Shown here piece by piece: positions 27,748-31,285 of a stretch of 64,000 bases of DNA. Source of the stretch: Amycolatopsis cihanbeyliensis (lineage in GTDB: Bacteria; Actinomycetota; Actinomycetes; Mycobacteriales; Pseudonocardiaceae); NCBI RefSeq assembly GCF_006715045.1, contig NZ_VFML01000001.1, forward strand, positions 3,688,501 through 3,752,500. The letters are read 5' to 3'. The notes under the pieces were generated by a model. That model saw only the letters and a program-made list of their open reading frames with translations. It did not search any database and had not been told where the DNA came from. A program made the position numbers and the translations under genes. Each line of letters opens with the position of its first letter. The stretch's first letter is position 1.

Positions 27748-30009
27748 TCAGTAACCCTGGTAGCCGCCGCCGGAGGCCATCGACTTCAGCCCAGGATGGC
27801 CCTCGAAGCCGCCGTAGCGGTCGAAGGTGTACCGGACGCCGGCGATGATGTTGTCCACCGGGTTGTAGATGTCGCCGTGGCCGGGGAGCTTGTGCGCCTG
27901 GAAGGTGGGGTCGATGCACTGCATCAGGCCCTTGGAGGGGGTGCCCTTGGCGGCGTTGGAGTTCCCGGTGAGGAACACCTGCTCCTCCTCGAAGGCCGTC
28001 CAGGTGCCCAGCCCGGTGCGCACGCACCAGACCTCCCCGCGGCCGGCGTCCTCCCGGGTCAGGAACGAGCCACTGATCACGGCGTTGTTCAGCTTGACCG
28101 CGGCCTCCGGGCTCCAGGTCTCCGGCTGCTCCGAACGGCTGCTGTGCAGCACCCGCGGGCGCGAGCCGGAAAGGTACACGGCCAGTGTCGTCGCCTCCAG
28201 CACCGGACCGGGTGCCTGGTAGATGGTCACCTGCGGCTTGGTGTAGCCCGGCTGCATCGTGCGGGTGCCCTCGGCGTCGATGATGGCTTCCAGCCACGCC
28301 TCCCGCTGCTCGCCGGACATCGCGAGCACCTGGGTGACCGCGTCCGACCTCGGATGCCCCGCGCGGGCCAGCAGATCCTGGGTGTACCCCGGCTCCAGCC
28401 GGAACTGGTGCCGGGCGCGGCCTGCCCGGTCGTCCACCGACACCGAGTGCGGCACGCCCGCCAGCAGGCTTCTCACCTGCTCGACCACCCGCGGCTTGGA
28501 CTGGGTGATCGACATGGTGAGCCGCCGCCCCCGGTGCTCGACCTGACCGTCCCCGGCGATCCAGCCGAGCAGCGCGGCCTCCCGCACGGTGACGTCCAGG
28601 TCGGCAGGGGTGTCCGCGGGCGCGGCGACCAGCAGCCGGTCCCTGCTGCGGATCTCCGCGGTGCTGACGAACTGGGACTCGGTGGCGTACGCGCTCTGCT
28701 GCTTGGGCGGCACCACCCCGTGCGCCTTGCGCCGGTGCACGGCCACGCCGTTGGCCGGCTGCGCGGCGGACCGCGGCTGGTAGCCGCACTCCGGGCAGAC
28801 CACCGGTAGCCCGGAACGCCGCACCCCGACCCGCGGCAGGTTGACCCAGCGGTGGTTCGGCGTGGTGGTGGCGTGCCAGCGGGAGTTGCCGATCCGGATC
28901 AGCGGCGCGTCCTGGTAGTGGATGACCTCCTCGATCCGGGTCCACTCGCTGCGGCCGGTGGCCGGGTTACGGCCGATCGTCTGGTCCCCGGCCCGCACCT
29001 GGTCGTGCTTCAGCCGTCCCCTGCGGGTCAGGATCATGGTGTCCAGCGGCACGCAGTCCCAGTTGTTGATCGCGTGCGGATCACCGCCGGACTCCTTCTC
29101 GATGATCGTCCAGATCTCGTCGATGTTGTCCTCGGTCACCGGGATGCCGTTGGCCTGCAGGATCTTGATGGCCTCCCGGATCCACTGCTCCACGTTGCCC
29201 GGCGGCGGACCGGAGCTCGGCGGGCCACCACTCGGGCCGAGGCCACCGCCACCGACGGCGCCCCCGCCCCCTCCTCCGGAGCCACCGCCGCCGCCACTGC
29301 CGCCACCGCCGACGCTCGGGCCGGGGCCCGCCCCGTTCAACCCGCCGCTGCCGCTCGGCGCGGTAGGGGCGGATCCGGGCTGCGGCACCGCGGAGAAACC
29401 GCCGCCGACCTCCTCCTTGACCAGGCGCATGGCCTTCTCGATGGCGTCATTGGCCTGGGTGAGCAGGTCGTCGATCCGGGTGGCGGCCCGCTCGGCGGTC
29501 TCACCGTTGGCCTTGGCCGCCTCCTCCCGGATGGTGGCCTCGTCCGGGTGCGGCGGCTTGGCGACCTCGCCACGCTGGAACGCCGCCTGCTGCTCGCGCG
29601 CGGCCTTGGCGTCGGTGTCGGCCTGGCGACTGCGCTCCTCGATCTCCTCCTTCGCGTCTTCCCTCGTCTGCTCGATATCCCGCTTGAGCCTGGCCAGGGT
29701 CTCCTGCAGGGTGTCCAACTCGGCGGCGACCTCGTCCAGCTTGTCCTTGACCTTGGTGCTGGCGGCGCCGATCCGGCCGACATAGTCGAAGAACGCCTCG
29801 GCGGCCGGGCCGTCCCACACCCCGCCCTGCAACGCGCTGGTGGCGTTCTGCAGCGCCGCGCTGTGGTCGCCCGCGCTCCTGGAAGCCTCGGCGAACTGGC
29901 GGGACACATCGTGGATGGCGCCGGGGTTCACCTTCTCCACCTGCGCGGCCTTGTCCTCGACCTTGCGCCACTCCGGCGGCTGCCCCGGCTCGGTCCTCTC
30001 GTCACCCAT
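27748..30009 (-). CDS. WXG-domain / lytic transglycosylase protein carrying an intein
   Basis: A 753-residue precursor. Residues about 20-115 form a WXG100-like helical hairpin (GGVWDGPAAEAFFDYV, WDG at 65-67). Residues 100-200 are charged and coiled-coil-like; 205-270 are a Gly/Pro/Ser linker. A soluble lytic transglycosylase (SLT) domain starts near 272, with the catalytic glutamate motif EKESGGDPHAIN (Glu306). At residue 319 the domain is interrupted by a 365-residue intein (to Asn683) and resumes SNAAKGTPSKGLMQCIDPTF. The spliced product would be 388 residues and would restore the ES...GLMQ core. No Sec signal is seen; export by type VII secretion is inferred from the WXG domain and the neighbouring EspC-, EspG- and PPE-like genes. 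Such an enzyme would cut peptidoglycan. Confidence 0.88.
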   Translation of the reverse strand: MGDERTEPGQPPEWRKVEDKAAQVEKVNPGAIHDVSRQFAEASRSAGDHSAALQNATSALQGGVWDGPAAEAFFDYVGRIGAASTKVKDKLDEVAAELDTLQETLARLKRDIEQTREDAKEEIEERSRQADTDAKAAREQQAAFQRGEVAKPPHPDEATIREEAAKANGETAERAATRIDDLLTQANDAIEKAMRLVKEEVGGGFSAVPQPGSAPTAPSGSGGLNGAGPGPSVGGGGSGGGGGSGGGGGGAVGGGGLGPSGGPPSSGPPPGNVEQWIREAIKILQANGIPVTEDNIDEIWTIIEKESGGDPHAINNWDCVPLDTMILTRRGRLKHDQVRAGDQTIGRNPATGRSEWTRIEEVIHYQDAPLIRIGNSRWHATTTPNHRWVNLPRVGVRRSGLPVVCPECGYQPRSAAQPANGVAVHRRKAHGVVPPKQQSAYATESQFVSTAEIRSRDRLLVAAPADTPADLDVTVREAALLGWIAGDGQVEHRGRRLTMSITQSKPRVVEQVRSLLAGVPHSVSVDDRAGRARHQFRLEPGYTQDLLARAGHPRSDAVTQVLAMSGEQREAWLEAIIDAEGTRTMQPGYTKPQVTIYQAPGPVLEATTLAVYLSGSRPRVLHSSRSEQPETWSPEAAVKLNNAVISGSFLTREDAGRGEVWCVRTGLGTWTAFEEEQVFLTGNSNAAKGTPSKGLMQCIDPTFQAHKLPGHGDIYNPVDNIIAGVRYTFDRYGGFEGHPGLKSMASGGGYQGY
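27961..29055 (-). mobile_element. Intein with LAGLIDADG endonuclease and zinc-finger-like insert
   Basis: Precursor residues 319-683. The splice motifs are Cys1 (CVPLDTMILTRRGRLKHDQV), block B with T-x-x-H (TTTPNHRW, His386), block F (EVWCVRTGLGTWTA) and a C-terminal VFLTGN followed by Ser684. The terminal Asn is present; the penultimate residue is Gly rather than the usual His, a form I recall from actinophage terminase-type inteins. Two dodecapeptide motifs, LLGWIAGDG (Asp487) and WLEAIIDAEG (Glu580), indicate a LAGLIDADG homing endonuclease with both acidic residues intact. A CPEC-x16-H-x4-H segment (405-430) looks like a zinc-binding finger. The gene is in frame throughout. Confidence 0.88.
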
Positions 30010-30037: not shown

Positions 30038-30355
30038 TTACGCGCGCATATCGTCCGGGTTGTGCACGGTCAGGCTGTCCCTGGCCGCCTCATCGGTTTC
30101 CGCGGTTACCTTCGCCGCGTCCCGCAGGGCCTCGCTGGTCGCCGTCATCAACCTGGCCGCGGCGGCGAGCTCGGCCTGCATTCCCGACGTGAAGGAGCCC
30201 AGCGCGGAGGAGATCCCGTCCGAGGTGTCCATCGCGCCGAACGGGTTCTCCCCGGCCACCCCGGTTACCCTGCCCTTCGCGGTTTCGAAATCGCCCGCGA
30301 GCTTGCCGATGTTTCCGGCCGTGATGTTCATGGAATCGGGATCATGTACCGGCAC
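30038..30355 (-). CDS. EspC/DUF2580-like type VII secretion target
   Basis: A 105-residue helical protein (GTG at 30355; ATG at 30331 possible). The body, NIGKLAGDFETAKGRVTGV ... AELAAAARLMTATSEALRDAAKVTAETDEAARDSL, has the long-helix hairpin of the EspC/DUF2580 group, whose members are secreted or act with ESX systems. No WXG and no exact Y-x-x-x-D/E motif is present. It lies 28 bases upstream of the WXG-transglycosylase gene, so the two may be expressed together, perhaps as partner proteins. Confidence 0.65.
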   Translation of the reverse strand: MPVHDPDSMNITAGNIGKLAGDFETAKGRVTGVAGENPFGAMDTSDGISSALGSFTSGMQAELAAAARLMTATSEALRDAAKVTAETDEAARDSLTVHNPDDMRA

Positions 30356-30472: not shown

Positions 30473-31249
30473 TCAGGTTTCGTCCAGTAGTTCCCACACC
30501 CGCTGGGCGAGTAACCCGCTGTCCGCGGGCGCGATGGTGGCCCAGTCCCGACCATCGGTGTTGCGCTGGACCTGGAACAGGTACCGGCCGGCATCGGTGT
30601 CGTGAAACGCGACCACCCTTCCGGCGCGACGGGACTGGCCGTCCCGCGCGGTGCGCTGCGCGCCGAACTGCCCACGGGAAACCGTGCCCAGCAGCATCCC
30701 GGCCAGCTCCTGCGCCTGCCACAGCGCTACCTGGCGGTCCTCCAGCGCCGTCACCAGCGCCTTCGCGTCGCCGCGGGCCTGTGCGTCGGCCGCGCGCAGC
30801 GTCTCGTGCGGCAGGCTGACCGAACGCCCGACCCCCGGGTCCAGCTCGCCGGCCACCGACACCGCCGACTCGGCGAGCGAGCTCTCCCAGACCGGGATCA
30901 GCCACACCTCGGCACCGTCCACCACGCACAGCAGTGCCTGGCTGCCGGAGACCACCGCCATCCCCTTGATCTCGCGCTCGGCCCATACCCAGACGTCGAT
31001 GCCCGCCTTGGGCCGGGCCAGCAACTGCAGCTGGTCGACCAGCCCGCCACCGGCGCGGCCCGCCCTCGCCAGCCCGCGCCCGGCCAGGGCCCGCCACGCC
31101 CGCTCGGCCAGCTCGGCCCGCTCGCTGTGGGTGCTGCCCGGGCTGGGCACGTCCAGCGCGGGATGCCGCGGCGGCAGCCGCTCGGCCTCCCACACGACGT
31201 CGAACTCCAGTGTGGACAGCACGATGCTGCCGCCGGCCGAAGACTCCAT
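30473..31249 (-). CDS. EspG-family ESX secretion-associated protein
   Basis: A 258-residue protein whose sequence (LSTLEFDVVWEAERLPPRHPALDVPSPG, RAWRALAGRGL, LARPKAGIDVWVWAE, and a C-terminal DADAGRYLFQVQ-like strand region, actually TDAGRYLFQVQRNTDGRDW) matches the EspG chaperone family. EspG proteins bind PE-PPE-type substrates in the cytosol and deliver them to type VII secretion. The PPE-like protein encoded just upstream (31425-33113) is the obvious client. Starts at 31249 (ATG) and 31222 (GTG) are both plausible. Confidence 0.85.
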   Translation of the reverse strand: MESSAGGSIVLSTLEFDVVWEAERLPPRHPALDVPSPGSTHSERAELAERAWRALAGRGLARAGRAGGGLVDQLQLLARPKAGIDVWVWAEREIKGMAVVSGSQALLCVVDGAEVWLIPVWESSLAESAVSVAGELDPGVGRSVSLPHETLRAADAQARGDAKALVTALEDRQVALWQAQELAGMLLGTVSRGQFGAQRTARDGQSRRAGRVVAFHDTDAGRYLFQVQRNTDGRDWATIAPADSGLLAQRVWELLDET

Positions 31250-31285
31250 CCAGGCGCTCAGCGTCTGCTTGCAAACGCGCGACAC

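What the first reader, a model, noticed from the sequence alone, without database searches (positions are those of the whole stretch)
27961..29055. Intein splitting the active site of a WXG-lytic transglycosylase
The SLT domain reads EKESGGDPHAINNWD, is interrupted by a 365-residue segment (Cys319 to Asn683), and resumes SNAAKGTPSKGLMQ. The catalytic glutamate motif and the GLMQ motif fall on opposite sides, so the enzyme cannot fold until splicing occurs. Inteins usually sit in nucleic-acid enzymes; one in a putative type VII-exported cell-wall hydrolase is unusual. It raises the possibility that splicing acts as a safety catch keeping a muralytic enzyme inactive in the cytosol. The segment boundaries and motifs are seen directly; export and control are inference.
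Basis: partly seen in the sequence, partly recalled or inferred. Interest (0 to 1): 0.92.

Follow-up and report, generated by a model that had tools for sequence, protein, structure and literature searches.

The report
Phage-type intein in cell-wall enzyme gene
A predicted self-removing protein insert (an intein) sits between the catalytic motifs of a bacterial cell-wall-cutting enzyme; it comes and goes among sister species, its closest relatives outside them sit at the very same spot in virus tail proteins, and it looks like a travelling selfish element rather than a built-in safety catch.

Summary
The 753-residue minus-strand ORF 27748-30009 is a WXG100/SLT protein whose SLT domain is interrupted by a 365-residue intein (Cys319-Asn683, +1 Ser684; 27961-29055), between Glu306 and GLMQ 694-697. 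In the genus (inferred to be Amycolatopsis), 78 of 80 genomes have the site intact: 20 carry the intein, 58 have the exact empty site WD|S. Presence is patchy (at least 13 changes on well-supported branches). Intein and extein trees conflict in two tested cases, and extein DNA beside the insert is co-converted in the same two, as expected for LAGLIDADG homing. Two copies have lost much of the endonuclease yet keep every splicing residue.

Its nearest relatives outside the host group are inteins at the same residue in the SLT domain of phage-type tape-measure proteins (joint clade 100/100); further phage relatives sit elsewhere in SLT domains. A safety-catch role is possible but unsupported. 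Splicing and cleavage were not assayed.

The parts
27748..30009 (-). whole ORF, 753 aa: WXG100 domain, Gly-rich linker, SLT domain interrupted by an intein
29692..29934 (-). WXG100 domain, residues 26-106
   Evidence: PF06013 37.3 bits; TIGR03930 35.2 bits, below its cut-off 44.85
29056..29199 (-). N-terminal part of the SLT domain (N-extein end), residues about 271-318, with Glu306 of ESGG
   Evidence: continuous SLT match in two intein-less orthologues; residue numbers
27961..29055 (-). intein, residues Cys319-Asn683 (365 aa)
   Evidence: exact empty site in 58 of 78 orthologues; profile of 44 relatives matches the Spl DnaX mini-intein chain 7cfv, E 3.4e-5; AlphaFold2 mean pLDDT 92.2
29053..29055 (-). 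Cys1 of the intein (Cys319)
   Evidence: invariant in 57 of 57 aligned relatives
28846..28863 (-). splicing block B, T65-P-N-H68-R-W70 (Trp = W of W-C-T)
   Evidence: T, H and W invariant in 57 of 57
28720..28797 (-). C2H2-like finger C87..C90..H107..H112 in the endonuclease part
   Evidence: each ligand present in 18-19 of 23 host rows, 3 of 3 same-site phage rows, 4-6 of 12 other SLT rows, 0 of 19 others; reading as a zinc finger is by eye
28546..28572 (-). first LAGLIDADG motif LLGWIAGDG (Asp169)
   Evidence: within the PF14528 match; Asp in 22 of 23 host rows
28267..28296 (-). second LAGLIDADG motif WLEAIIDAEG (Glu262)
   Evidence: read by eye; Glu in 22 of 23 host rows
28024..28026 (-). 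block F Cys344 (Cys662), C of W-C-T
   Evidence: invariant in 57 of 57
27961..27969 (-). block G Thr363-Gly364-Asn365; Thr is T of W-C-T
   Evidence: Thr and Asn invariant in 57 of 57
27751..27960 (-). C-extein, SLT C-terminal part, from Ser684 (+1) with GLMQ at 27919-27930
   Evidence: found in 79 of 80 genomes of the genus at E <= 1e-10
30473..31285 (-). EspG-family neighbour gene
   Evidence: PF14011 220.9 bits
31425..33122 (-). PPE-like neighbour gene
   Evidence: PF00823 25.6 bits, just under cut-off 26
30038..30355 (-). short ESX-like neighbour gene, 105 aa
   Evidence: only weak matches to EspB_fam and WXG100_ESAT6, under cut-off

Best explanation
A mobile LAGLIDADG-type intein has homed into the conserved catalytic stretch of the SLT (lytic transglycosylase) domain of a WXG100-SLT protein. 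Expected mode of action (inferred, not assayed): after translation the insert cuts itself out. The bond before residue 319 is attacked either by Cys319 itself or, as the W-C-T triplet suggests, by the internal Cys662; the N-extein moves to Ser684; Asn683 cyclises; and the SLT domain is left with WD-SN rejoined. At the DNA level the endonuclease part cuts empty alleles at the site and the gap is repaired from the intein-bearing copy, with nearby extein DNA copied along. The same intein clade occupies the same residue in phage-type tape-measure SLT domains, so the host gene and phages share a homing site. The likeliest history is entry from phage and then spread, loss and endonuclease decay among Amycolatopsis species. 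Shown here: the precise insertion, patchiness, tree conflict and co-conversion in two cases, decay series and phage kinship. Inferred: splicing, cutting, and direction phage to host.
For: Exact empty site in 58 of 78 orthologues, 20 filled. Presence needs at least 13 changes on starred branches of the extein tree. Intein alignment rejects the extein grouping for G029 (AU p 2.6e-4) and G084 (p 8e-112); G083 and G084 inteins are 87.2% identical at DNA level but their exteins 70.8%. Co-conversion in those two: at sites where donor and sister differ, near the insert donor:sister is 16:6 against 11:270 far away (G084, p 5e-15) and 25:7 against 56:206 (G029, p 3e-10). Splicing residues C1, T65, H68, W70, C344, T363, N365 invariant in 57 of 57 while two host copies, 279 and 251 aa, have lost much of the endonuclease. 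Endonuclease core of full-length copies under constraint, median dN/dS 0.185 in 120 pairs. Branch holding 23 host plus 3 same-site tape-measure-type inteins, support 100/100; tape-measure families by PHROGs. The host SLT piece matches 608 of 50,697 phage records; 10 of the 12 rows shown are annotated tape measure protein.
Against: No splicing or cleavage data. Not every case shows co-conversion: of 7 species tested, G009 shows none (0:28 near, 8:269 far), G100 leans the other way (2:49 near, 66:145 far, p 1.2e-5), G017 and G089 are not significant, G088 is intermediate (p 5.5e-4); the p values are not corrected for seven tests. The groups for the AU tests and the sisters and donors were chosen after both trees had been seen, which makes these p values lenient. 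Parts of the intein tree agree with the extein tree (for example G000, G013, G080, only 88/74), so vertical descent with losses also plays a part. Direction is not settled: the host rows form one group (97/98) and only three same-site rows outside it are known. No Pfam or NCBIfam intein splicing model reached its cut-off.
Confidence: 0.86

Rival explanations
1. Safety catch: splicing is conditional and keeps a muralytic enzyme inactive until it is exported or needed.
For: The insert lies between the catalytic motifs. Relatives in phage tape-measure-type proteins also break SLT catalytic motifs at several points, some directly after the catalytic Glu, and one in Gordonia phages breaks an M15-like motif (by eye). 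Zinc and copper inhibit splicing of other inteins (PMC7765530 passages), and a C2H2-like finger is present.
Against: 58 of 78 orthologues do without it, with gains and losses between close sisters. Wider relatives sit in what look like DNA polymerase, sigma factor, portal and terminase genes, which need no such catch (gene names by eye). The finger is missing in some copies. Insertion into active sites is the ordinary habit of inteins (PMC7765530 passages).
Confidence: 0.07
2. Dead insert: the intein no longer splices and the gene is a pseudogene in these strains.
For: No product has been seen; the penultimate residue is Gly rather than His.
Against: All 20 filled orthologues keep an open frame with ESGG and GL[ML]Q. 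C-exteins of pairs among the 16 species with full-length inteins are constrained (median dN/dS 0.128, 120 pairs). Splicing residues stay intact even where the endonuclease has decayed. The penultimate His is poorly conserved among class 1 mycobacteriophage inteins (PMC5050341 passages).
Confidence: 0.04
3. Ancestral intein of the genus, inherited vertically with many losses; mobility long gone.
For: Host inteins form one group, 97/98, partly matching extein groups; base composition like the exteins.
Against: AU tests reject vertical placement for G029 and G084 and their flanks are co-converted; the endonuclease core is constrained.
Confidence: 0.08
4. A conserved SLT insertion domain, not an intein.
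For: None found beyond the position inside the domain.
Against: Exact absence in 58 of 78 orthologues, splicing motifs, LAGLIDADG motifs and a match to a solved intein.
Confidence: 0.01

Closest known systems
Class 3 inteins (for example Mycobacteriophage Bethlehem DnaB, M. chimaera DnaB1)
   Same: W at block B 12, C at block F 4, T at block G 5 (definition in PMC5050341 and PMC3196547, passages); proposed phage origin
   Different: Those lack a nucleophile at position 1; this one has Cys1 in all 57 aligned rows. From recall only: Tori and Perler 2011 found that inteins with both features splice by the class 3 route; that paper is not held
Tape-measure-type SLT inteins in IMG/VR contigs L114 and L164 and in a Streptomyces albicerus scaffold (L111)
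   Same: Same branch (100/100), same insertion residue WD|SN, same motifs and finger
   Different: Host protein is of phage tape-measure type, not a WXG100 protein; inteins are 370-427 aa; the two collections they come from carry no annotation
Gordonia phages Mcklovin and Twinkle tape-measure intein
   Same: Best named-phage match, 34.7% identity; Cys1 plus W-C-T; sits in a cell-wall-hydrolase-like motif
   Different: Inserted in an M15-like HxH motif (NADH|SDHVHW, read by eye), not in SLT; annotated as tape measure protein only
Mycobacteriophage DNA methylase and metallophosphoesterase inteins
   Same: Distant relatives found by tblastn
   Different: About 23-27% identity, other host proteins and sites
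SLT domain PF01464 / tape-measure peptidoglycan hydrolase motifs (TM4; PMC1796659, only the listing and start of abstract seen)
   Same: The exteins are of this family
   Different: Here fused to a WXG100 domain near EspG

Membership tests
Intein (splicing element) | precise in-frame insertion with homologues lacking it | tested here: met
   20 filled, 58 empty, all WD|S, of 78
Intein (splicing element) | blocks A, B, F, G with Cys1, TxxH, Asn and Ser/Thr/Cys +1 | tested here: met
   57 of 57 for C1, T65, H68, N365; Ser684
Intein (splicing element) | match to a curated splicing-domain model | tested here: not met
   no Pfam or NCBIfam splicing model over cut-off for this insert; a mini-intein relative reaches PF14890 only below cut-off; but a profile of relatives matches a solved intein. 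Not taken as defining, since the models are known to be partial (own judgement)
Intein (splicing element) | self-splicing activity | not testable with these tools
   needs expression
Intein (splicing element) | Hint fold | tested here: inconclusive
   confident model, mean pLDDT 92.2, mostly strands at both ends with an alpha/beta middle; fold search never accepted
Class 3 intein | W-C-T triplet | tested here: met
   57 of 57
Class 3 intein | no nucleophile at position 1 | tested here: not met
   Cys1 in 57 of 57; so called mixed, not class 3 in the strict sense
LAGLIDADG homing endonuclease | two LAGLIDADG motifs with acidic residues | tested here: met
   PF14528 25.4 bits over 22.5 covers the first motif; Asp169 and Glu262; second motif by eye
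LAGLIDADG homing endonuclease | cuts the empty site | not testable with these tools
   indirect only: co-conversion clear in 2 of 7 cases, weaker in 1
SLT lytic transglycosylase | profile match and catalytic Glu | tested here: met
   33.1 bits in the filled protein, 44.9 and 49.5 bits in two empty ones; ESGG in 20 of 20 filled
WXG100 / type VII substrate | WXG100 domain | tested here: met
   PF06013 37.3 bits over 27.3; TIGR03930 under its cut-off
WXG100 / type VII substrate | YxxxD/E signal after the helical hairpin | tested here: not met
   only matches are at 715 and 732, inside the SLT part
WXG100 / type VII substrate | secretion through an ESX system | not testable with these tools
   EccC and EccD present in the genome; EspG nearby

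The most novel reading that the evidence does not exclude
There is a lineage of inteins that specialises in cell-wall-cutting catalytic sites of phage tails and of their bacterial hosts, and its splicing is tuned so that the muralytic domain stays off in the cytosol: a latch used by phage tape-measure proteins and borrowed by a bacterial type VII-linked enzyme.
Probability: 0.07. Interest if true: 0.88.

Novelty: new variant of a known kind. Interest (0 to 1): 0.56.

Why it matters
It adds a non-nucleic-acid home for inteins, with a shared homing site between phage tail proteins and a bacterial cell-wall enzyme, so phage-to-host intein traffic can be studied directly: natural filled and empty alleles exist in sister species, some with co-converted flanks, and with a decay series. 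It also gives a clean natural test of whether inteins in muralytic enzymes do anything for the host. The splicing-domain models in the two libraries used do not reach their cut-offs on it, so such inteins are probably under-counted (inference).

Tried and rejected
Conserved SLT insertion: rejected by empty sites. Foreign base composition: no contrast between intein and exteins in the eight genomes printed, so it says nothing about recent arrival. Plasmid carriage: no match in 72,556 records at E 1e-3. Wider cellular spread: 4 of 348 genomes in the order, the window's own among them, all in this genus or one sister genus of the same family; with the phage intein L164 as query 2 of 396 in the phylum, the window's own and one at 30% identity. 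Intein models: no Pfam or NCBIfam splicing model over its cut-off. Flanking DNA likeness between host and phage sites (15, 20 and 21 of 24 bases) is suggestive only, since the proteins are conserved there too. One match, G032 (E 5.8e-4, one stop), was dropped as spurious: 20 of 80, not 21. G011 (broken C-extein frame) and G071 (no match) were dropped before the 78. Viral loci L130, L171 and L172 and some others were not read and are not counted. Slips of mine: one search read one record per file (mended); bad patterns (mended). Papers: the check is partial. One search showed 20 of 44 papers, 25 of 111, 15 of 161, 8 of 10; others (25; 4; none) were shown whole. No title or abstract start in these listings describes an intein in an SLT or tape-measure domain.

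Full report
What is there. The minus-strand ORF 27748-30009 codes for 753 residues: a WXG100 domain, a glycine-rich linker and an SLT domain. Residues 319-683 (27961-29055) interrupt the SLT domain between Glu306 of ESGG and GLMQ at 694-697. The insert has LAGLIDADG motifs (PF14528 over cut-off) and the intein splicing blocks. A profile of 44 relatives matches the solved Spl DnaX mini-intein (7cfv, E 3.4e-5, the one match at E 0.01). An AlphaFold2 model is confident (mean pLDDT 92.2), but no fold search was accepted. No Pfam or NCBIfam splicing-domain model reached its cut-off.

Filled and empty alleles. The C-extein is found in 79 of 80 genomes of the genus. Of these, 78 have an intact site; G011 has a broken frame. 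20 carry the intein and 58 read WD|S directly. Lengths run from 366 down to 251 aa. In the two shortest (279 and 251 aa) much of the endonuclease is gone: the 251-aa form has neither LAGLIDADG motif in usable form, the 279-aa form keeps the second. Both keep the seven splicing residues checked.

Mobility. On the extein tree (DNA, quick search) the presence of the intein needs 14 changes, at least 13 forced by starred branches; random labels need 17.9 on average and 3 of 500 shuffles were as low, so it is clustered but far from one clade. Sister pairs such as G009/G035 and G084/G068 differ in state. The intein alignment rejects the extein grouping of G029 with G028, G090 and G094 (p 2.6e-4) and of G084 with G009, G001 and G079 (p 8e-112); G000, G013 and G080 do group (88/74), and adding G100 to them is not rejected (p 0.15). 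I chose these groups after seeing both trees, so the p values are lenient. Extein bases that separate donor from sister are donor-like near the insert and sister-like far away in G084 and G029, less so in G088, absent in G009, reversed in G100, not significant in G017 and G089 (sisters and donors picked from the two trees, seven tests uncorrected). Median dN/dS among full-length copies is 0.185 for the endonuclease core, 0.264 for the whole middle part, 0.076 for blocks F and G, 0.227 for blocks A and B and 0.128 for the C-extein: the endonuclease core is about as constrained as the splicing blocks, as expected for an element still in use.

Phage relatives. Three viral scans gave 48, 42 and 12 loci, with overlaps; a fourth gave 2, both already found. 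I read flanks of 47, 26 and 5 viral loci. In 17 distinct predicted viral contigs the intein lies in a stretch that reads, by eye, as an SLT domain: after the catalytic Glu (L168, L170, L208, L209, L212), NN|S (L163), WD|S (L114, L164), HP|S and VAD|S, two inteins in one domain (L165/L115), after the GL[ML]Q or GIPQ motif (L116, L118, L122, L127, L166, L169), and near the end (L117, L167). That makes eight positions by my eye alignment. +1 is Ser in all 16 contigs where that junction was read. PHROGs calls the host protein tape measure and/or transglycosylase for L114, L116, L117, L118, L122 and L163-L166, L168, L170; L127, L167, L169, L208, L209, L212 were not tested. A Streptomyces albicerus scaffold (L111) has the WD|S form in a tape-measure-like ORF. 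In the 57-row tree the 23 host inteins (20 from the genus set plus three from named Amycolatopsis genomes) and the three WD|S rows lie together at 100/100, the host rows alone at 97/98; four of the five GIPQ|S rows group at 99/96 (the mini-intein L127 falls outside, on a long branch), and the two Glu|S rows in the tree at 100/99. The tree is rooted at the midpoint for drawing only. The host C-extein itself matches 608 of 50,697 phage records, and 10 of the 12 rows shown are annotated tape measure protein. So one DNA stretch serves as a target in both worlds. The relatives were found by likeness to this intein, so the share of SLT hosts among them is not a fair count.

How it most likely works. 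Cys1, block B Thr, His and Trp, block F Cys, block G Thr and the last Asn are invariant in 57 of 57 rows; viral rows were found through patterns in some of these blocks, which favours this. The W-C-T triplet defines class 3 inteins, which by definition lack a nucleophile at position 1 (PMC5050341 and PMC3196547 passages). This family has both. From recall, such mixed inteins start splicing at the block F Cys; that paper could not be read. So a C319A mutant may still splice, and C662A is the better test.

Host gene. EspG, PPE-like and, further on, DUF3558 genes lie near it. EspG lies close by in filled and in empty genomes, for example G013 and G017 (filled), G020 and G074 (empty), comparing; I did not count all. 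EccC and EccD sit elsewhere in the chromosome. Export is plausible, not shown.

The safety-catch idea. Inteins commonly sit at active sites, where they are less prone to deletion (PMC7765530 passages). With 58 of 78 orthologues free of the insert and repeated gain and loss, a needed catch is unlikely. A conditional effect in filled strains is not excluded.

Novelty. Paper searches (open-access subset, listings seen only in part) showed no report of inteins in SLT or tape-measure domains; 'intein' with 'WXG100' gave no paper. Two actinophage intein papers and one on mycobacteriophage inteins do not contain 'tape measure' or 'lysin' (find in main text). One paper states that none of the endolysins of 224 mycobacteriophages is interrupted by introns or inteins (PMC3314691 passage). 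The kind is known; the home, the mixed signature and the shared phage and host site make it a new variant.

Noticed in passing
L165 / L115 (IMG/VR 3300037258_000024): Two related inteins within one tape-measure SLT domain (GHP|S and VVAD|S).
   Followed up: partly
L127 4001-4414: A 138-aa mini-intein without endonuclease directly after GAYGIPQ in an ORF that reads like a tape-measure SLT domain.
   Followed up: partly
L068 6001-7056: Gordonia phage Mcklovin tape-measure protein carries an intein, not annotated as such, in an M15-like HxH motif (NADH|SDHVHW).
   Followed up: partly
L111 980-3853: Streptomyces albicerus ORF joins a terminase-like start to a tape-measure-like end with the intein; looks like a prophage remnant.
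   Followed up: no
L037 (G011): C-extein of the SLT gene lies in a short broken frame; the gene looks disrupted in this genome.
   Followed up: no
L078 (G095): Intact empty SLT site, but the reading frame upstream of the glycine-rich stretch looks shifted, and the row has a very long branch in the extein tree.
   Followed up: no
L050 and L063 (G091): Two intein-bearing copies in one assembly with the same intein protein, contamination estimate 6%; duplication or assembly artefact.
   Followed up: no
L208, L209, L212: Three viral contigs with a 423-aa intein directly after the catalytic Glu (IQTE|SGGN).
   Followed up: no
L069 1501-2472: E. coli phage AV126 'hypothetical protein' reads as a DNA-polymerase-like ORF with a related intein (Cys +1).
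   Followed up: no
window 28720-28797: C2H2-like finger inside the intein, found only in the SLT-invading rows of the alignment and lost in some copies.
   Followed up: partly
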